Positions 24,127 to 62,997 of a stretch of DNA of 64,000 bases are shown one piece after another. The position numbers and the translations under genes are program-made. Under the pieces are notes generated by a model. That model did not search any database, was not told the DNA's origin, and saw nothing but the letters and a program-made list of their open reading frames with translations. Origin of the DNA: Zavarzinia marina (GTDB taxonomy: Bacteria > Pseudomonadota > Alphaproteobacteria > Zavarziniales > Zavarziniaceae); contig NZ_JAKGSB010000010.1 in NCBI RefSeq assembly GCF_021568905.1, positions 1-64,000 on the forward strand, in the 5' to 3' direction. The first letter of the stretch is position 1, and each line of letters begins with the position of its first letter.

Positions 24127-24299
24127 GCCCCAAACCTCCCGCGGCGCCGCGCGCCCCTGGCTGACCGAGGACATCGCCGCAGGCGGAACAAGCGCCTGGA
24201 TTCGTGGCTGGAAGGAAAGCCCGCCGCGACAACGTCCGTGACGCATCACCGCAGCGGTTGGCCCGCTACCGCAGGCTCGCCCGGCCTTCGGTAGAGTGA

Positions 24300-24475
24300 T
24301 GCCCCTGGCGGCAGGTCTCCTGGCTCGCGGGTTATGGCCCTGTACCGTCTTCCCGACCCCATCGGGGATCAGTGACGTCTGGTACGGGCTCGCCGCTCAC
24401 AGTTGCGGGGACAGCCACGGTCGGGCGCGAACGCCTTCCGTGTTCCCTTTGAATCCCATGGGGGAACCGCCAAAG
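24300..24475 (-). ncRNA. Cobalamin riboswitch
   Basis: On the minus strand, 24475 to 24300 carries the conserved B12 elements in order: GGTTCCCCC...GGATTCAAAGGGAA, then GTCCCCGCAACTGTGA, GTCGGGAAGACGG and the B12 box AGCCAGGAGACCTGCC (24325-24310). It lies in the leader of btuB, about 170 bp before the start codon. It should repress btuBFCD when adenosylcobalamin is abundant. Confidence 0.95.
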
Positions 24476-24524
24476 ATGGCGCAGTTGAAGCGCGGCCGGG
24501 GCTTCGTGTCAATGGCGTTGCGGC

Positions 24525-43417: not shown

Positions 43418-43765
43418 TCATTCGGCGATCAGGGCCCGGGCCTTGGCGTCGAGCGGCGCCCCCAGGGCATCGAGCGCGCGGAGCAGGCGGATCGCCTCGT
43501 CCCGGTCGGTGAAATTGGCGCTGAAGACGCGGATGCCCGCCTTTGGCTCCAGGCTCACCATCTGGCCGATGGCCCGCCCCGTCGTCACCCGCGCCAGATC
43601 GGCGACGGCGAGACGCGTGCGCCTGATCACGCGGATCACCACCGCATCGCCCTCGATCGACAGCAGGGGATTGATGGCGTTCCGCGTCAGCGCCAGGAAG
43701 GGCACGCGCTTCAGGCCGGTGAAACAGGCCATGGGATGGAATGTTTCGGGTTTCGAGTCGGTCAT
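43418..43765 (-). CDS. Unknown protein linked to PLP enzyme
   Basis: A 115-residue protein with strands [16 protein letters not shown] and a helical C-terminus ([16 protein letters not shown]). It overlaps the stop of the upstream PLP-enzyme gene by four bases, so the two are almost certainly co-translated. The function is unknown; a partner or regulatory role for that enzyme is inferred. Confidence 0.6.
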
Positions 43766-44856
43766 CGGAATTCGCCGGTATCGAGGAACTGTTCGAGGCG
43801 GGCGCGGTGGGGCGCGATGTCGATGCCCTGGGCCGCCAGCCAGTCCGGATCGTAATAGGTGCCGGCATAGCGATCGCCGCCGTCGCAGATCACCGTGACC
43901 AGCGCGCCTTCGCGGCCCTCGCGCATCATCCCGGCGGCGAGCCGGCAGAGCGCATGGAAATTCGTTCCCGTCGACGCCCCGACCCGGCGGAACAGCCGTT
44001 CCGACAGGACATGGGCGGCGGCGATGGAGGCGGCATCGGGCACGCGCATCATGTGATCGATCACGCCCGGGATGAAGGAGGGTTCGACGCGCGGCCGCCC
44101 CACCCCCTCGATCCGCGACGGGCGATCGCAGATGACGCCCATGTCGCCGGTCATGAAGGCATCGTAGAAGGCCGAGAATTCGACATCGGCGACGCACAGC
44201 CGGGTGTCGAGATTGCGATAGCGGATGTAGCGCCCGAGGGTGGCGGAGGTGCCGCCGGTGCCGGCGCTCATCACGATCCAGTCGGGGACCGGATGCGGCT
44301 CCTGGCGCATCTGCTCGAAGATCGAGACGGCGATATTGTTGTTGCCGCGCCAATCCGTCGCCCGTTCGGCATTGGTGAACTGGTCGAGGTAATGCCCCCC
44401 CGCCTCCTGCGCCAGACGCGCGGCGACGCCGTAGACCTCGTCCGGCCGCCCGACCAGGTGGCAGCGCCCGCCGAAGCGCTCGATCGCCTCGATCTTGGCG
44501 GGCGAGGTGCTGCGGGTCATGACCGCGACGAAGGGCAGGCCCAGCAATTGCGCGAAATAGGCTTCCGAGACGGCGGTGGAGCCCGACGAGGCCTCGACCA
44601 GGGTCGTGCCCTCGCGGATTTTCCCGTTGCAGATCCCATAGAGGAACAGCGAATGGGCCAGGCGGTGTTTCAGGCTGCCGGTCGGATGGGTCGATTCATC
44701 CTTCAGATAGACCGAAATTCCCGGCAATCCCTTGAACACCGGCTTCAGCAGATGGGTATCGGCCGAACGGTGGCGATCGCCCTGCAGGATCTCGATCGCC
44801 CGCCGCGTCCAGCCGCGATCGGCGCATTCGGGCAGGGCGAACTCGTCTGTGGTCAT
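43762..44856 (-). CDS. PLP-dependent cysteine synthase-fold enzyme (Cds1-like)
   Basis: A 364-residue fold-type II PLP enzyme. The PLP lysine is in [29 protein letters not shown] and the [14 protein letters not shown] phosphate-binding loop are intact. A longer C-terminal half with [15 protein letters not shown] resembles the L-cysteine desulfhydrase (Cds1-like) group, which differs from CysK. It may release sulfide from cysteine. GGGAG lies 10 bases before ATG 44856. Confidence 0.75.
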
Positions 44857-44993
44857 GCGGCACAATCTCCCCTCGCTCGCGTCGCGGCAGAGGATAGAGC
44901 GGAACCGAGGGCTTTGTGAACGGCGCCGACACGGAGGCCCGGCCCCTCAGGCCGAACCCGGGAGCGGGCGGCCGGTGCGGAAGGGCGTCTCCT

Positions 44994-45482
44994 TCATCGC
45001 GCCCCGCCCTTCCGGCGCCGGTTCGCCGCCGGCAGGATTTCCAGCAGATCACCGTAGTCCTTGAGGATGCCGTCGCGAGGGTCGACGAAGAAGCTCCGCC
45101 CGCGATGCCAGGGGTTCGACGCCTCGATGATCCTGCCGTCGGTCATCCATTCGCCATGACGCCCGACGGAGATGCGCGAGACGACGAAATCGTCGAGGTG
45201 AAGCCGGACATGGATCTTCACCGCGCTCCGCGTGTCGAGAACCGCGCAGATCTCGCTGAACACATCATCCCAGCGCCGGCCCCGCCGGCTGCGCAGAAAA
45301 CGCACCAGGGGCGCCAGATTCTCGTTGAGATACTTCTGGTCGCGCGCGGCGATACTGACATGCCGCAGATGCCCGATGTGCTTGAGGCCATCATCGCGGC
45401 CCGGCTTCAGTTTCGGCGCCTTGGCGTAGCGCGACCCCATGCGCGGCCGCTCCACGATCACCTTGAACATGTCATCACGCAT
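44994..45482 (-). CDS. Conserved-looking hypothetical protein
   Basis: A 162-residue basic protein with segments MFKVIVERPRMGSRY, AARDQKYLNENLAPLVRFL and GILKDYGDLLEILP. It has no known motif. GGGAGG sits 6 bases before ATG 45482, inside the upstream small gene, whose stop lies within this gene. It borders the left edge of the A+T-rich insert. Confidence 0.6.
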   Translation of the reverse strand: MRDDMFKVIVERPRMGSRYAKAPKLKPGRDDGLKHIGHLRHVSIAARDQKYLNENLAPLVRFLRSRRGRRWDDVFSEICAVLDTRSAVKIHVRLHLDDFVVSRISVGRHGEWMTDGRIIEASNPWHRGRSFFVDPRDGILKDYGDLLEILPAANRRRKGGAR

Positions 45483-45615
45483 CGCCGGCCTCCCCCTTGC
45501 GGAAGAAGGCCTGCGGCGCCTGCACGCCCGGACCATCAATGTAGAAGAATTCGCCGGCCCTGAGCCCAAGCGAAACGATCAGGCGAAATGCTTCGCCCGA
45601 GACGGGATTGCCCAT
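45475..45615 (-). CDS. Small protein upstream of the hypothetical gene
   Basis: A 46-residue frame (from MGNPVSGEAF) overlapping the next gene by 8 bp, which suggests translational coupling. GGGA precedes the chosen ATG. An upstream ATG at 45636 would add seven residues. It contains GEFFYIDGPGVQAP. The function is unknown. Confidence 0.45.
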   Translation of the reverse strand: MGNPVSGEAFRLIVSLGLRAGEFFYIDGPGVQAPQAFFRKGEAGDA

Positions 45616-45928
45616 GCCATTCGTCCCTGAATGCATTGGAAAGTGAGATGTGTCGCGTGTCTGTTCGACGCTGCGTGCATGACGTTCTCCTTTCCATTCG
45701 CAGGGACTGGCCAAAATCGGCGAGCGCGGAAACTACGGCAATTCGCGCGGGAATTCAAGGAGGTGGGCGACGGAGCTAAATGGCACAAAATTGCGGGACA
45801 CTATACAGCCAATTTTCAGGTATGAATTTGGGGTGCGCAACCCTGAAAACACACCTACTGGAAAGCGCCATCAGGAAGCGTGACAATATTTTCCGGTTGC
45901 CCCCATTCAGCGAACGAGACATTACGAA
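45616..45928. other. A+T-rich leader of the STAND gene; no supported gene
   Basis: Base composition drops visibly here compared with flanking DNA. Short frames exist on both strands but they overlap each other and show no ribosome sites or recognisable products. A near-palindrome GGGGTGCGCAACCC lies at about 45832-45845. It probably contains the promoter of the 1451-codon gene and the left junction of the insert. Confidence 0.4.
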
Positions 45929-48900
45929 ATGCCGATGGAGAGCAAATCCTGTGAAATCGAACGCAACTTCGAAGATATTCCCGCAGATAAAATTACGGAA
46001 TCTGAGCAAACCGCGTACCTCATGGATTTGGGATGGCACAAAGGTATTAATTGGACTACTTTATTAGAATCAAAACGTGTCCTCATTATCTCCGAAGCCG
46101 GGGCTGGCAAAACTTATGAATGTCGAAAAAAAAGAAATGAGCTTTGGTACGATGGGCAGCCTGCCTTTTTTATAGAATTATCGACCCTTGCAAATGGAAA
46201 TTTGCGTGATCTTTTTTCTTTTGAAGAGGAAAATCGCTTCGATGCTTGGCGTGCAGCGCGGTCTGATGTTGCTACTTTTTTTCTCGATTCGATAGACGAA
46301 CTGAAGCTGACCCTCGGCTCGTTCGAGCAGGCACTGAAACGTTTGGCCAAAGCAATCGACGGTCAGCTTGGCCGAGTGCGCGTCATCATTACGTCGCGCC
46401 CTATTCCAATTGACGAACAGCTCTTTCGCCAAATCCTGCCAATACCCGATTTGCCGGAACCTGATGCAACAGAGGATGAGTTCGCCGATATTGCTATGGG
46501 GAATGCGAAGGCACAATCCTCGGAGGCCGAGTTCAATCGGGACTGGCGCAATGTCGCGCTCCTGCCGCTGTCGACCGAGCAGATAGCGGTCATTGCCAGC
46601 AATGAAGGGAGCCCAGATTCTGATGCACTGCTCGGCGACATAAAAAAGCGCAATGCAGAGGATTTTGTGCGCAGACCACAAGATCTGATCGAACTATGCG
46701 CTGACTGGCGAGAGCATCGCCGCATCCGCTCCCACCACGATCAGGTTGCGAGCAACGTAGCGGTCAAACTGAGGCCCCGTGATGACCGCCGAGAACGAGC
46801 GCCTCTATCTGCGGACAAAGCGTTGGAGGGTGCGCGCAGATTGGCACTTGCAGCAACGCTTAGCCGCAAGCTCACTATTCGACACAGTGCCGAAGCAGAT
46901 CGCACAGGCGATCCAATCGAAGCGCCGCTTGATCCTTCGCGCATTCTCCACGACTGGTCGCAAGAGGAATGCACCACATTGCTCGAGCGACCACTCTTTG
47001 GCATGGCTTCATATGGCCGCGTTCGCTTCCATCATCGTTCCGTAGTCGAGTATTTGGCCGCTGAATACCTTCTTGCCCTGCGCGTGCGGGGAATGCCGGC
47101 CAAATCGATCAAACGTATCTTATTCACGACGGCGCAAGGTGATGCCGTGATCAAGCCATCGTTGCGGCCGGTTGCCGCGTGGATGGCGCTTCAGGACGAC
47201 GTAGTTCTAGAGGAAATTCTTGCTCGGGAGCCAGATGTACTCTTGAACCATGGCGACCCGGAATCACTTCCGCTCGCACAGCGCCAGCGGGCTCTGCGGG
47301 CCTATGTTGAACGGCATCGCGCAGGAGGTTGGCGAGGGCTGCTTGTTCCTCGAATCCAGCTTCACCGGTTTGCGTCGCCCGACCTGGGCCCGGAAGTAAA
47401 ACGCCTTTGGACGGCCGGTATCGAGAACCACGAAGTTCGCGAGATTCTGCTGGAATTGGCGGGGCTAGGGAAAATGGATGATTGCGCAGATATTTGCCAC
47501 GACGTGGCGATGAATGCGCTTGCCAGCCAAAGTGAGCGGATCGAGGGGCTAAAAGCCCTCATCCAAATCGAAGAGCCACGCCTTACAACGATTGCGTCTA
47601 GCGTAGCCGACAATGAGTGCCTATGGCCCGATCGCCTCGCACAGATTGCATTGCTTCGCCTCTTCCCATCCCATCTCTCTGTAGAACTTCTCTGCAGAAT
47701 TCTGAAGCGCGTCACCGCGCCCGAGAGCAGGGCCTCTGACCTATCATGGACTCTTCCCCGACTGGCCGAAAAGGTCGATCTCTCACCGGCGGAGCTAGAT
47801 GATTTCCGTCGCCGGATTACCGAGTTGGCTGAGGAAGGGCCTTGCTGGGAGAAAGACGAATGGCCTCATCTCGCCAGTAAACGTCAATTTCTATTGCCCG
47901 TATTGGCGGCAATCTGCCTCCGCATGATGACAAAAGGATTTATTTCGCCTGATGTTATGCACTCTGTTGTAATAGCGTTGTGTATGACAGAAGGCACATA
48001 TGACGGCACAGATCAGGCAAAAGCTCTCGCCACTGCATTCGCTGAAGCGCCGCTCGATGCTCGTCGCCTGGCTTTTGAGGCGCAAGACACAATCTTTCAG
48101 CGGTATAGCCCTGAGCCGAACGCCCGCCAGAGATATGCACGCCTGGCGTACAATGATCGGCCAGTCCAGCTCGGACCTTCCGATATGCCGTGGATCGTTG
48201 TTTCGCTTTCGGATCGCAATCGCCCTGCGGACTACCGCGCTATGCTGCTGCAAGCAGCGATCTCCGGCCGTGACGACAGCGTTTCGTGGCTGGATCACCT
48301 TGCATCGTTGAAGCCATGCGTCGCCGATCTGAAAGAATTAGTCGACCAACTCGACGAATATGCAAAACCGCCCCCTCCTGACCCCAATACCGAGCAATTA
48401 CGCGCCCGGATAAAAGCATTGCGAGAACAAGAACGGCGTCGCGAGGCGAAATCTCGTGCTAGTTGGCAGATGTTTCGCCGCAACATCATCGTCGATCCGG
48501 AAAAATTTTTAGGACCAGATCACGCAGAGAATACTGCACGAAATCTTTGGCGAGTAATGTATAATGGTGATAGTGGAAGCCGCGCGTCTGGCTGGAACAG
48601 GCGTCTCATTGAACGGCATTTCGGCAAGGACACTGCCGATCGTTTGCGCACCGCTTTTATGGCGTATTGGCGTGCTAACCGTCCGGAGTTACGGAGCGAA
48701 CGCGCAGAAGCGGACAAAAATAAATTCTTTGAGCATTGGCTTTTCGGTCTTGCCGGAATCGTCGCAGAATCTGAAGATTCCGAATGGGCGAAAGCACTTA
48801 GCAATGAAGATGCAAAATTAGCCCTGCGTTACGCCCCCCTCGATTTGAATGGTTTTCCGGCATGGCTCGACGATTTAGCGGCGGTCCATCCTGAAGCACT

Positions 48901-50284
48901 CGACGATGTATTGGGTGTGGAACTCACGGCTGAATTGGCCGAGCCTGCGTCCTCTCATTCAGTATTGCTTCAAAGCGTTCGACATGGAACGGATACAGTA
49001 GCGCGGCACTTCGTACCCCGCCTTCGCGATTGGTTGGATGCTCGCAATTGGTTACAGGACCATGAAACTGAAAGCGTCCACACGAGCCGACTGACTCAGG
49101 TTCTGCAAATTCTGCTGCGGCTTGGAGACACAGCCACTTTAGACCATGTGCGCGCCCTCGCACGCGCGGAGTTGTCGGAAGGGGTGAAAAACTCCTCAAT
49201 CGAGGAATGGCTTCCAGTTCTGATGCACCTCAGTCCGTCAGATGGAATCGAAGCACTTGAGAAGACTCTACTTCAATGCCCGCCGTCAAAATTCGGGACG
49301 GCAACAGAGTGGTTCAGCAGACTCTTCAGCTTCAGGCGCCGTACTGATGAAGGTCAGACTTCCGTTTCACGTCTACCACCTAACTTGCTGCTGCGGTTGG
49401 CACGTCTTGCATTTCGACATATCCGACCAACGGATGATATGAACAGGGGGCCGGGGCATTTTACGCCCAATGTGCGAGACCATGCTGAGGATGGTCGCAG
49501 TAACATCATTAACGCTCTATTTGCGACAAAGGGCCCCGAAGGTTGGGCTGCGAAGATCGAGTTCGCTCATGATCCACTTTTCGCCGATTACAGAGATCGG
49601 GCGATCTCGGTCGCCCGGGAGCGGGCCAGCGAGGACGCAGACGCCCTTGCCTATTCGGAAGGCGAAATATTAGCGCTTGATCAGCGTGCTGAACTGCCGC
49701 CGCTGACGCGCGACGACATGTTCACGCTCCTGTCGGATCGGCTTGAAGACTTGGCCGATTTGCTGCTGCGCGATGATTCCCCACGCGCCGCATGGGCGCT
49801 TATTGAGGATGAGACAATTATGCGCCAGCAAATTGCTCGCGAATTGCGACGCGATGCCAATGGCGCATATACGGTCGACCAAGAGGCGGTAACGGCCGAG
49901 CAAAAGGAAACAGACATCCGCTTGCGCTCTACCGGTTCCGAGCAGGAAGCGGTCATCGAGCTAAAAATTGGTGAAAAAAATTATTCTGCGGCCGATCTGA
50001 CGGCAACGCTAAGAAACCAGATCGTCACGAAATATCTGGCCCCGGAACACAGGCGGTGCGGCTGCCTACTCATCACCGTCACAGAACTTCGTACCTGGCG
50101 GCATCCGGTCACTAAGGCAATATTAGACCTGGACGGCCTCATGGCCATGTTGAACGAAGAAGCCTCCAAAATTGAGAAAGAGATGGGCAACGGCCTTCGC
50201 CTGATCGCACGCGGTCTGGACCTTCGACCGCGCTTGTCGACCGAATCGGCTCGGGCTGCGAATCGCAAGGATCGCGTTCGGTAA
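45929..50284 (+). CDS. STAND/NACHT-like NTPase with C-terminal PD-(D/E)XK-like domain
   Basis: A 1451-residue protein in a lone, A+T-richer insert. Residues 50-200 form a STAND-type P-loop NTPase: Walker A SEAGAGKT (55-62), Walker B FFLDSIDEL (117-125, the NACHT-like LDxxDE form) and sensor-1 VIITSRP (152-158). The FHHRSVVEYLAAEYL block around 370-390 resembles the winged-helix/helical end of NACHT modules. Residues about 400-1280 are almost entirely helical repeat-like, as in ligand sensors. Near the end D1329 in TDIRL and E1344-x-K1346 in VIELKIG form a D-(x14)-ExK signature of PD-(D/E)XK nucleases, followed by NYSAADLTATLRNQIV. Domain order is opposite to Avs proteins with N-terminal nucleases. 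Antiphage defence is inferred. The start is ATG 45929 or 45935. Confidence 0.75.
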   Translation: MPMESKSCEIERNFEDIPADKITESEQTAYLMDLGWHKGINWTTLLESKRVLIISEAGAGKTYECRKKRNELWYDGQPAFFIELSTLANGNLRDLFSFEEENRFDAWRAARSDVATFFLDSIDELKLTLGSFEQALKRLAKAIDGQLGRVRVIITSRPIPIDEQLFRQILPIPDLPEPDATEDEFADIAMGNAKAQSSEAEFNRDWRNVALLPLSTEQIAVIASNEGSPDSDALLGDIKKRNAEDFVRRPQDLIELCADWREHRRIRSHHDQVASNVAVKLRPRDDRRERAPLSADKALEGARRLALAATLSRKLTIRHSAEADRTGDPIEAPLDPSRILHDWSQEECTTLLERPLFGMASYGRVRFHHRSVVEYLAAEYLLALRVRGMPAKSIKRILFTTAQGDAVIKPSLRPVAAWMALQDDVVLEEILAREPDVLLNHGDPESLPLAQRQRALRAYVERHRAGGWRGLLVPRIQLHRFASPDLGPEVKRLWTAGIENHEVREILLELAGLGKMDDCADICHDVAMNALASQSERIEGLKALIQIEEPRLTTIASSVADNECLWPDRLAQIALLRLFPSHLSVELLCRILKRVTAPESRASDLSWTLPRLAEKVDLSPAELDDFRRRITELAEEGPCWEKDEWPHLASKRQFLLPVLAAICLRMMTKGFISPDVMHSVVIALCMTEGTYDGTDQAKALATAFAEAPLDARRLAFEAQDTIFQRYSPEPNARQRYARLAYNDRPVQLGPSDMPWIVVSLSDRNRPADYRAMLLQAAISGRDDSVSWLDHLASLKPCVADLKELVDQLDEYAKPPPPDPNTEQLRARIKALREQERRREAKSRASWQMFRRNIIVDPEKFLGPDHAENTARNLWRVMYNGDSGSRASGWNRRLIERHFGKDTADRLRTAFMAYWRANRPELRSERAEADKNKFFEHWLFGLAGIVAESEDSEWAKALSNEDAKLALRYAPLDLNGFPAWLDDLAAVHPEALDDVLGVELTAELAEPASSHSVLLQSVRHGTDTVARHFVPRLRDWLDARNWLQDHETESVHTSRLTQVLQILLRLGDTATLDHVRALARAELSEGVKNSSIEEWLPVLMHLSPSDGIEALEKTLLQCPPSKFGTATEWFSRLFSFRRRTDEGQTSVSRLPPNLLLRLARLAFRHIRPTDDMNRGPGHFTPNVRDHAEDGRSNIINALFATKGPEGWAAKIEFAHDPLFADYRDRAISVARERASEDADALAYSEGEILALDQRAELPPLTRDDMFTLLSDRLEDLADLLLRDDSPRAAWALIEDETIMRQQIARELRRDANGAYTVDQEAVTAEQKETDIRLRSTGSEQEAVIELKIGEKNYSAADLTATLRNQIVTKYLAPEHRRCGCLLITVTELRTWRHPVTKAILDLDGLMAMLNEEASKIEKEMGNGLRLIARGLDLRPRLSTESARAANRKDRVR

Positions 50285-50362
50285 CAAGGCGCAACGCGGC
50301 CTGAGACTGTTGGCTCGCGAATACACCAAACCCCGACTTCCTCCGGCAATTGTGAGGCACAT

Positions 50363-50390
50363 AAAAAAGGCGGCGCCTTGCGGCGCCGCC
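50363..50390 (-). terminator. Intrinsic terminator of ahcY
   Basis: On the minus strand a perfect 9-bp stem GGCGGCGCC/GGCGCCGCC with loop GCAA is followed directly by six Ts. It lies 26 bp past the ahcY stop. This is a textbook intrinsic terminator. Confidence 0.9.
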
Positions 50391-50415
50391 CTCGTCCGTG
50401 CCGACTGATCCTCGA

Positions 50416-51711
50416 TCAGTAGCGGTAGTGTTCCGGCTTGTAGGGGCCTTCGACCTTGGTGCCGATGTATTCGGCCTGGGCCGGGCTCATGGCGGTCAGC
50501 TTGACGCCGAGCTTGGCGAGATGCAGGCGCGCGACCTTCTCGTCGAGGTGCTTCGGCAGCATGTAGACCTTGCGCTCGTAGCTCGCGTGGTTCTTGAACA
50601 GTTCGATCTGGGCGATGACCTGGTTCGAGAAGGACGCCGACATGACGAAGCTGGGATGGCCGGTGGCGCAGCCGAGGTTCACGAGGCGGCCTTCGGCGAG
50701 CACGATCAGGCGCTTGCCGTCGGGGAAGACGACTTCGTCGACCTGGGGCTTCACGTTCTCCCAGGGGTAGTTGCGGAGCGCGTTGATCTGGATCTCGCTG
50801 TCGAAGTGGCCGATGTTGCAGACGATGGCGCGGTCCTTCATGGCGCGCATGTGCTCGATCGTGATCACGTCGATGTTGCCGGTGGTGGTCACGAAGACGT
50901 CGCCCTGGGGCGCGGCGTCTTCCATGGTCACGACCTGATAGCCTTCCATCGCCGCCTGCAGGGCGCAGATCGGATCGATCTCGGTGACGAGGACGCGGGC
51001 GCCCTGGCCGCGCAGCGAGGCGGCCGAGCCCTTGCCCACATCGCCGTAACCGGCGACGACCGCGACCTTGCCCGCCAGCATGACGTCGGTCGCGCGCTTG
51101 ATGCCGTCGACGAGCGACTCGCGGCAGCCATAGAGATTGTCGAACTTCGACTTGGTGACGCTGTCGTTCACATTGATCGCCGGCACCTTCAGGGTGCCCG
51201 CCTTCCACATGTCGTAGAGGCGGTGCACGCCGGTCGTGGTCTCTTCCGAGAGGCCGAAGACGCCGTCCATCAGTTCCGGGTATTCGTTGTGCATGAGGAC
51301 GGTCAGGTCGCCGCCGTCATCGAGGATCATGTTGGGCACCCAGCCGTCCGGCCCCTTCACGGTCTGGTGGATGCACCACCAGAATTCCTCCTCGGTCAGG
51401 CCCTTCCAGGCGAAGACCGGAATGCCGGCCGCCGCGATCGCCGCCGCCGCCTGATCCTGGGTCGAGAAGATGTTGCACGACGACCAGCGCACCTCGGCGC
51501 CGAGCGCGGTCAGGGTCTCGATCAGGACGGCGGTCTGGATCGTCATGTGCAGGCAGCCGGCGATGCGCGCCCCCGCCAGCGGCTTGGCCGCGCCATATTC
51601 CTCGCGCAGCGCCATCAGGCCGGGCATCTCGGTCTCGGCGATGGCGATCTCCTTGCGGCCCCAGTCGGCGAGCGAGAGATCCTTGACCTTGAAGTCGGTG
51701 AAAGCGGCCAT
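50416..51711 (-). CDS. ahcY: Adenosylhomocysteinase
   Basis: A 431-residue NAD-dependent enzyme splitting S-adenosylhomocysteine into adenosine and homocysteine, which relieves inhibition of methyltransferases. The catalytic and NAD regions are clear: [39 protein letters not shown], and the Rossmann loop [10 protein letters not shown]. It ends in the conserved EHYRY. It belongs to the methionine cycle with the SAM-II-controlled metZ at the far end of the window. Confidence 0.97.
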
Positions 51712-62858: not shown

Positions 62859-62910
62859 ACACCGCCTGGCCATTGACGCGCGCGGCGGTTCGGGCGTAAT
62901 TTGCCCGCCG

Positions 62911-62962
62911 TCGTGGGATTTGAGCCGGCTGGCTTGCGGCCACGTTAAAAACCGCTAAAAAG
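62911..62962 (+). ncRNA. SAM-II riboswitch
   Basis: P1 is CGTGG (62912-62916) with CCACG (62940-62944). The pseudoknot pairs GCGG (62936-62939) with CCGC (62952-62955). GATTTGAGCCGG, TTAAAAA and GCTAAAAAG are conserved positions. It is in the leader of metZ, 53 bp before its start, as expected for alphaproteobacteria. Confidence 0.93.
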
Positions 62963-62971
62963 CCGGGCGTG

Positions 62972-62997
62972 AAAACCCGGCCGAGGCCGGGTTTTTT
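62972..62997 (+). terminator. Intrinsic terminator between SAM-II element and metZ
   Basis: AAAACCCGG...CCGGGTTTT forms a hairpin followed by Ts (62992-62997). Upstream GCCGGG (62962-62967) can instead pair with CCCGGC (62976-62981). That gives a mutually exclusive antiterminator. Confidence 0.75.

What the first reader, a model, noticed from the sequence alone, without database searches (positions are those of the whole stretch)
45929..50284. Lone 1451-residue STAND/NACHT-like NTPase with C-terminal PD-(D/E)XK-like nuclease motif
Seen: Walker A SEAGAGKT at 55-62, LDxxDE Walker B at 117-125, TSRP sensor, about 900 residues of helix-rich sequence, then D1329...E1344-x-K1346. Known: antiviral STAND (Avs) and bacterial NACHT proteins couple an NTPase and a repeat sensor to an effector; in the Avs proteins with nuclease effectors, the nuclease is N-terminal. 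Here the NTPase is N-terminal and the nuclease-like module C-terminal. It also stands alone in an A+T-rich insert. Inferred: a single-gene antiphage system of unusual architecture.
Basis: partly seen in the sequence, partly recalled or inferred. Interest (0 to 1): 0.82.

Follow-up and report, generated by a model that had tools for sequence, protein, structure and literature searches.

The report
NACHT defence protein with tail nuclease
This is a single horizontally acquired gene for a bacterial relative of animal immune receptors that carries its likely DNA-cutting weapon at the tail instead of the head; it belongs to an antiphage family that already has a name (HyoA), so it is real but not a new kind of system.

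Summary
The 1451-residue ORF at 45929-50284 (+) is intact and every quoted motif is in place. AlphaFold2 plus structure comparison gives an N-terminal NACHT module like NLRC4/NOD2/NLRP3 (Avs4 the best Foldseek hit), a long helical region, and a C-terminal PD-(D/E)XK domain (pLDDT 92; neighbours BamHI, Can2, McrBC, NucC). D1329, E1344 and K1346 are kept in 75 of 75 aligned full-length family members. The gene is alone in a 4.6-kb, 54% GC insert in 68% GC DNA; none of the 6 other genomes of its family examined has it. Relatives are sporadic, occur on plasmids, and lie in regions richer in defence-like genes than a control; the window's own neighbours are not defence genes.

It is not an undescribed system. 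NCBIfam (June 2026) holds an equivalog model, 'NACHT domain-containing antiphage protein HyoA', which it matches end to end (1544.7 bits, cut-off 1200). I found no paper using that name in the held library.

The effector sits at the opposite end from the textbook STAND order. One further point may be new: three relatives (two lineages) keep the NACHT-helical chassis but lose just the nuclease. One ends in a transmembrane-like helix; two overlap an upstream Fic gene. This suggests an exchangeable C-terminal effector.

The parts
45760..50362 (.). Horizontally acquired insert holding only this gene; left flank homologous to a congener up to 45759, right flank from 50363
   Evidence: blastn/tblastn against three congeners (G003, G001, G004) and one genome of the sister genus (G006); GC 54.3%. 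Left edge rests on G003 alone.
45929..50284 (+). HyoA-family protein, 1451 aa: NACHT module + helical region + C-terminal PD-(D/E)XK nuclease
   Evidence: NF058534.1, 1544.7 bits over cut-off 1200, residues 10-1435
45929..47443 (+). NACHT module (about residues 1-505), no room for a separate effector domain before it
   Evidence: AF2 model mean pLDDT 85.5 over residues 1-1150; VIA-align NLRC4 Z 14.4, NOD2 12.9, NLRP3 12.5, rows spanning residues 6-505; Foldseek Avs4 E 4.7e-8
46091..46114 (+). Walker A, residues 55-62 (K61)
   Evidence: K61 75 of 75
46277..46300 (+). Walker B, residues 117-124 (D120, D123, E124)
   Evidence: each 75 of 75
46397..46399 (+). R157 of the TSRP motif, sensor-1-like position (function inferred)
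   Evidence: 75 of 75
47444..49678 (+). Almost wholly helical region, about residues 506-1250, putative sensor (alpha-solenoid by inference); residues 501-900 and 1001-1100 diverge fastest
   Evidence: DSSP of the models; identity to the five nearest relatives 0.34-0.59 per 100-residue block at 501-900 and 0.43-0.54 at 1001-1100, against 0.60-0.83 at 101-500
49691..50248 (+). PD-(D/E)XK nuclease domain, about residues 1255-1440
   Evidence: AF2 residues 1150-1451 mean pLDDT 92.0, alpha-beta3-alpha-beta core; VIA-align BamHI Z 8.8, Can2 8.4, OkrAI 8.1, McrBC chain 7.1
49913..49966 (+). Catalytic D1329 (49913-49915), E1344 (49958-49960), K1346 (49964-49966); catalytic role inferred from the motif
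   Evidence: 75 of 75; D just before strand 181-185 and E-x-K in strand 191-198 of the model
50366..50393 (-). Terminator-like hairpin just outside the right edge of the insert, downstream of ahcY (50416-51711, -) and on its strand
   Evidence: 12-pair stem with T tail; pattern scan whose total is at chance level (6 found, 5.8 expected)

Best explanation
It is a member of the HyoA antiphage family: a cytoplasmic, single-protein NLR-like receptor. Inferred working: at rest the NACHT module holds ADP and the helical region keeps the protein closed. A phage-derived or phage-altered molecule binds the helical region. ATP exchange through Walker A/B then lets the NACHT modules oligomerise. Oligomerisation pairs or clusters the C-terminal PD-(D/E)XK domains, which cut DNA (phage, host or both) and stop the infection, probably at the cost of the cell. 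Shown here: family membership, NACHT fold, helical region, nuclease fold, invariant motif residues, horizontal acquisition, defence-like context of relatives. Inferred: trigger, oligomerisation, substrate, outcome.
For: NCBIfam NF058534.1 'antiphage_HyoA' equivalog, 1544.7 bits vs 1200, full length. NACHT fold: Foldseek Avs4 4.7e-8, NLRC4 7.3e-5, SAMD9 2.5e-4; of the first 36 VIA-align rows 32 name an NLR in their title and the other 4 are oocyte cytoplasmic lattices (NLRP proteins, recalled), above Orc1/Cdc6 AAA+ at 9.5. Nuclease fold: VIA-align list is mostly restriction and CRISPR-ancillary PD-(D/E)XK enzymes (class of most rows recalled), with ASFV RNA polymerase (2 rows) and GATOR1 (1 row) as exceptions. 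Motif residues 75 of 75 and 10 of 10 further relatives with frames over 1400 aa (the phage-record copy L125 differs at Walker A G58). Sporadic: 8 of 385 class genomes over cut-off, own included; 0 of 5 congeners and 0 of 1 genome of the sister genus matched. Mobile: 66 of 72,556 plasmid records. Context of relatives: PADLOC families hit by neighbours 201 (nearest genes, 144 proteins) and 158 (outermost genes of the loci, 140 proteins) against 37 for 142 proteins from arbitrary genome stretches. Tree interleaves Alpha- and Gammaproteobacteria and other groups.
Against: No activity is shown. The paper behind the HyoA name was not found, so I cannot check what was tested or on which protein. PADLOC-DB 2023 has no match for the protein and Pfam only a chance one. 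Foldseek for the nuclease domain has no hit under E 1e-3; the best, a McrBC chain, is 2.0e-3. VIA-align Z of 6-9 is a range that its own notes call common. In the window itself the gene is not in a defence island: of 10 neighbouring proteins scanned against PADLOC, 9 had no match and 1 (the HemN-like one) a weak one, 4.8e-6. The PADLOC comparison counts families, not proteins, near and outer genes hardly differ, and the control is not species-matched.
Confidence: 0.72

Rival explanations
1. McrBC-like restriction enzyme: the NTPase works as a motor or switch on DNA and the C-terminal nuclease cuts phage DNA directly, without cell suicide and without a protein trigger.
For: Three of the four lowest Foldseek E-values for the nuclease domain are McrBC entries (2.0e-3, 1.2e-2, 2.4e-2; that these chains are McrC is recalled), also Z 7.1; nuclease and NTPase in one system.
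Against: The NTPase matches NACHT modules of NLRs better than AAA+ proteins (best Z 14.4 vs 9.5), and about 750 helical residues fit a ligand sensor. No DNA-reading domain was recognised by the family scans.
Confidence: 0.13
2. Defence against plasmids or rival mobile elements rather than phage, carried by plasmids and islands to keep out competitors.
For: 66 plasmid records carry relatives, 33 of them typed conjugative; the P. aeruginosa, R. rhizogenes, K. pneumoniae and B. glumae copies have transposase genes within the stretch shown.
Against: The family name says antiphage; copies also lie on chromosomes (for example). Defence genes ride on plasmids in general (recalled).
Confidence: 0.12
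3. Ordinary regulatory or housekeeping STAND ATPase with no defence role.
For: No experiment on this protein; its own neighbours in the window are not defence genes.
Against: Not found in 6 of 6 other genomes of its GTDB family examined, foreign composition, patchy phylogeny, several broken copies among relatives, defence-rich neighbourhoods of relatives, conserved nuclease motif.
Confidence: 0.03

Closest known systems
HyoA (NCBIfam NF058534.1, 'NACHT domain-containing antiphage protein HyoA')
   Same: Full-length match, 1544.7 bits against a cut-off of 1200, profile 1-1430 of 1430.
   Different: Nothing seen that sets this protein apart; the publication behind the model was not found.
EruA (NCBIfam NF058535.1)
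   Same: Related family: 151.9 bits over residues 199-1346; some relatives of EruA-like length (not tested against the EruA model) also match HyoA's C-terminal positions (G409 1185-1430, G454 975-1428).
   Different: Far under EruA's cut-off of 1000, so not a member.
Bacterial NACHT (bNACHT) proteins, e.g. bNACHT25
   Same: NACHT NTPase plus putative sensor and effector in one protein.
   Different: Stated order is N-terminal effector, central NACHT, C-terminal sensor (PMC12169576, introduction read in full); here NACHT comes first and the nuclease last.
Avs (AVAST) proteins, Avs4
   Same: Best Foldseek hit for residues 1-1150 (E 4.7e-8); STAND NTPase plus helical repeats (nuclease effector of Avs4 recalled).
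   Different: In Avs proteins the effector is N-terminal (Avs5 paper, passages; for Avs4 recalled); PADLOC finds no match.
STAND NTPase-GT4 fusions (PMC8195603)
   Same: Predicted effector often at the C-terminal side of a STAND NTPase (passages).
   Different: Effector is a glycosyltransferase fold, not PD-(D/E)XK; prediction only.

Membership tests
HyoA (NF058534.1) | Whole-protein score over the curated cut-off, full-length coverage | tested here: met
   1544.7 vs 1200 bits, protein 10-1435, profile 1-1430 of 1430
HyoA (NF058534.1) | Protects against phage | not testable with these tools
   needs an infection assay; source paper not found
EruA (NF058535.1) | Score over curated cut-off 1000 | tested here: not met
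   151.9 bits
NACHT-type STAND NTPase | Walker A, Walker B with acidic pair, conserved arginine | tested here: met
   K61, D120, D123, E124, R157 in 75 of 75 (Walker patterns were part of the search, so partly circular)
NACHT-type STAND NTPase | NACHT fold | tested here: met
   NLRC4 Z 14.4, rmsd 6.4 over 367 residues; NOD2, NLRP1, NLRP3 Z 12.5-12.9; predicted model, not a solved structure
NACHT-type STAND NTPase | Pfam NACHT or nSTAND model over its cut-off | tested here: not met
   none for this protein; nSTAND3 in 2 of 8 members of A1, best 2.2e-4
bNACHT / Avs tripartite proteins | N-terminal effector, central NTPase, C-terminal sensor | tested here: not met
   only about 50 residues precede the Walker A strand; nuclease at about 1255-1440
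Avs (PADLOC models) | Match to any PADLOC-DB 2.0.0 model | tested here: not met
   0 families at E up to 1
PD-(D/E)XK nuclease | D...E-x-K motif and alpha-beta3-alpha-beta fold | tested here: met
   75 of 75; model and structure neighbours
PD-(D/E)XK nuclease | Metal-dependent DNA cleavage | not testable with these tools
   needs biochemistry

The most novel reading that the evidence does not exclude
HyoA-type proteins are an inverted class of NLR-like immune receptor: a constant N-terminal NACHT module and helical region with an exchangeable effector plugged in after residue ~1250. The usual plug is PD-(D/E)XK; in one viral-contig relative (L099) it is a short linker plus a transmembrane-like helix, and in two Rhizobium plasmids (L152, L153) the chassis ends there and its start overlaps the end of a Fic-family gene, which could act as effector in trans. 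If so, the order of effector, switch and sensor is not fixed in STAND immunity.
Probability: 0.4. Interest if true: 0.6.

Novelty: new member of a known kind. Interest (0 to 1): 0.4.

Why it matters
NLR-type immune receptors in animals, plants and bacteria are generally described as effector first, NTPase in the middle, sensor last. A widespread family with the effector at the far end asks how a NACHT oligomer can activate a nuclease some 750 residues away, behind the likely sensor, and the nuclease-less relatives give a natural experiment for it. As a find in this genome it is one more member of a named family.

Tried and rejected
Pfam and PADLOC on the protein: nothing useful. phmmer and profile searches of PDB sequences: no hit, or hits that I take for chance; the superantigen-like rows (E 0.04-0.13) fall on one 61-position stretch and were dismissed. 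Foldseek on the nuclease domain alone was weak (no E under 1e-3), and VIA-align was needed. The first genome-contig scan with the single protein found no relative; the alignment-based scan found 333 stretches, of which the best 80 were kept. E. coli genomes: one blastn query from the Halomonas relative found nothing, which says nothing about distant E. coli homologues. Source of the names HyoA and EruA: searches and wider ones 16, 31, 80, 81, 97 did not find it; the DefensePredictor paper (outline and passages) has no word starting with 'Hyo' or 'Eru' in its main text; its supplements were not read. Exact 10-base direct or inverted repeats at the insert edges: none. Sigma-70-like promoter in 45700-50450: none. 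First thought that Burkholderia glumae plasmid copies matching only to residue ~1240 were effector swaps: one (L154) is full length with the nuclease, and in another (L155) the gene is interrupted by a transposase gene; the rest were not opened, so none is counted. More Fic-linked or nuclease-less copies: none among the 8 of 385 class genomes that matched the Rhizobium chassis; all 8 have frames of 1434-1477 aa. A scan of viral contigs with the L099 protein returned only its own contig.

Limits of the PADLOC context test: 37 of 53 loci with at least 9 kb on both sides (of 80 loci) were used, two nearest and two outermost genes a side; the outermost are mostly 7-10 kb away but some are nearer; proteins of 1000 aa or more dropped (144 and 140 left). 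Genes were called by a crude longest-ORF script; for minus-strand genes of A4 and A5 (not A6) the start codon was cut and the stop kept. The control A6 is 142 of 152 sampled proteins from 19 stretches of nine genomes of the class. The alignments A4-A6 were made of unrelated proteins only to have their members scanned.
Full report
Observation. The ORF is there as described: 45929-50284 on the + strand, 1451 aa, ATG start. The gene lies in a stretch of 54.3% GC inside a 67.9% GC window, GC3 0.54 against 0.71-0.93 in six neighbouring genes.

Insert. A congener (G003) keeps the same gene order: ahcY, the small gene at 44994-45488, the cysteine desulfhydrase-like gene. Homology with the window ends at 45759 and resumes at 50363. 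Two more congeners (G004, G001) lose homology at 50363 and 50365, and a genome of the sister genus at 50418, but these three do not have the left-hand genes there, so the left edge rests on G003 alone. A terminator-like hairpin of ahcY lies at 50366-50393. The insert therefore holds only this gene. G003 has about 6.2 kb of unrelated genes at the same junction, so the spot is variable. None of the 5 other congeners and 1 sister-genus genome has a match (two of the congeners are about 75% complete).

Fold of residues 1-1150. AlphaFold2 with 63 sequences gave mean pLDDT 85.5. Foldseek's best PDB hits are Avs4 (4.7e-8), NLRC4 (7.3e-5) and SAMD9 (2.5e-4); helical-repeat proteins such as mTORC1 and FANCI/FANCD2 follow at about 1e-3. 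VIA-align puts NLRC4 (Z 14.4), NOD2 (12.9), NLRP1 (12.8) and NLRP3 (12.5) first, with rows spanning residues 6-505, above Orc1/Cdc6 (9.5). So the NTPase is a NACHT module. From about 506 to 1250 the models are almost all helix. In the five nearest relatives residues 501-900 and 1001-1100 diverge fastest, as expected of a sensor; that it is the sensor is inference.

Fold of residues 1150-1451. Mean pLDDT 92.0 with the alpha-beta3-alpha-beta core; D1329 directly precedes one core strand, E1344-x-K1346 lies in the next, Q1364 and Y1369 in the following helix. Foldseek is weak (McrBC entry, 2.0e-3), but most of the 50 VIA-align rows are PD-(D/E)XK enzymes (class recalled for most; many rows are EcoRV): BamHI 8.8, Can2 8.4, OkrAI 8.1, PaqCI 7.4, McrBC 7.1, FokI 7.1, EcoRV 6.8, NucC 6.3, Lamassu LmuA 5.8; ASFV RNA polymerase and GATOR1 rows are the exceptions. 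These Z values are moderate; the invariant motif makes the call firm: E1319, D1329, E1344, K1346, Q1364 and Y1369 in 75 of 75 (one pair of rows identical), and in 10 of 10 further relatives with frames over 1400 aa (12 rows checked, two were already in the set). The set of 75 was filtered for matches spanning at least 1350 residues.

Family. NCBIfam calls it HyoA: 1544.7 bits, cut-off 1200, full length; EruA is a distant relation at 151.9 bits. The model type is equivalog and the name says antiphage. I searched the held library for the names and found no relevant paper, so what was tested, and on which protein, is unknown to me.

Distribution. With the HyoA model: 13 of 385 genomes of the class match at E 1e-3 and 8 of 385 pass the cut-off, own genome included; in the phylum 36 of 398 match and 7 of 398 pass, own included. 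Of the 14 control genomes 1 gave a match and none passed the cut-off. In a collection of 84,980 species genomes 333 stretches encode relatives; the 80 kept are mostly Proteobacteria, with Verrucomicrobia, Chlorobi, Myxococcota, Thermodesulfobacteriota and Planctomycetota. Plasmids: 66 of 72,556 records. Phage records: 2 of 50,697, both named Acinetobacter phage MD-2021a, annotated 'Predicted NTPase (NACHT family)'; the genes shown around the one opened are mostly of bacterial type. Viral contigs: 2. A FastTree tree of 70 rows needs 12 changes for Gammaproteobacteria and 10 for Alphaproteobacteria (shuffled means 21.4 and 18.6): labels cluster but classes interleave, which fits repeated transfer without proving it. 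In 5 of the 80 kept loci (L035, L078, L084, L085, L086) the homology is split over two open frames: broken copies or sequencing errors.

Context. Proteins of the two nearest genes on each side of 37 relatives (144 proteins) hit 201 PADLOC families at E 1e-10; the outermost genes of the same loci (140 proteins) hit 158; 142 proteins from 19 arbitrary 20-kb stretches of nine genomes of the class hit 37. Near hits include Septu PtuA/PtuB, IetA, AriA and Gabija GajA; Pfam adds BrxL and PglZ. Family counts overlap heavily and are not protein counts, near and outer genes differ little, and the control is not species-matched; the contrast is suggestive only. In the window itself 9 of 10 neighbouring proteins have no PADLOC match and 1 a weak one: here the gene is alone, not in an island. 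On five plasmids opened with whole genes the neighbours differ from one to the next.

Architecture. The bNACHT25 paper (introduction) and the Avs5 paper (passages) state that STAND proteins have an N-terminal effector and a C-terminal sensor. In this protein about 50 residues precede the Walker A strand and the nuclease is last. This is not without precedent: passages of PMC8195603 describe predicted GT4 effectors often C-terminal to STAND NTPases.

Effector exchange. Three relatives keep the chassis with intact Walker residues but lack the nuclease. L099 (viral contig, 1311 aa) matches the chassis profile (1.8e-181) and stops matching near residue 1253; it goes on with a short linker and ends in a transmembrane-like segment (best 19-residue hydropathy 2.84 against 1.73 in this protein). 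L152 and L153 (Rhizobium plasmids, 94.7% identical to each other, so one lineage) end near the same point, have no hydrophobic tail, and their start codon overlaps the stop codon of an upstream Fic-family gene (Pfam Fic, 1.4e-14 and 1.7e-14). Both lineages break at about the start of the predicted nuclease domain. Two lineages are few; loss of the nuclease by decay, with the Fic gene a mere neighbour, is not excluded.

Mechanism and verdict. Best reading: phage-triggered NACHT oligomer that activates C-terminal nuclease domains (0.72). Rivals: McrBC-like direct restriction (0.13), anti-plasmid defence (0.12), non-defence (0.03). As a finding: correct observation, right biology, but a member of a family already named as antiphage; interest 0.4.

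Noticed in passing
L119:2138-8318 (same-genus genome G003, junction next to ahcY): The site that holds HyoA in the window holds about 6.2 kb of other genes in a congener: an 818-aa protein without NCBIfam match, and proteins with weak, below-cut-off matches to a Crp/Fnr regulator, a thermonuclease and OlsE; RtcB-PrfH genes (over their cut-offs) lie on the far side of the next gene. Looks like a variable insertion site.
   Followed up: partly
L152:3730-8615 and L153:3715-8618: Fic-family gene overlapping a HyoA-like chassis gene that lacks the nuclease, on two Rhizobium plasmids typed conjugative; possible two-gene variant.
   Followed up: partly
L099:7998-11930: HyoA-like chassis on a viral contig with a C-terminal transmembrane-like helix in place of the nuclease.
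   Followed up: partly
L155:4878-10903: In one Burkholderia glumae plasmid the HyoA-like gene is interrupted by an ISNCY-family transposase gene, whereas a sister plasmid (L154) carries it whole.
   Followed up: no
window 24293-24486 (-) and 62903-62978 (+): Cobalamin riboswitch (110.4 bits) and alpha-proteobacterial SAM riboswitch (48.7 bits).
   Followed up: no
window 43765-44865 (-): PLP enzyme close to L-cysteine desulfhydrase Cds1 (557 bits, cut-off 600); a close copy (85%) only in G003 among the 6 family genomes examined.
   Followed up: no
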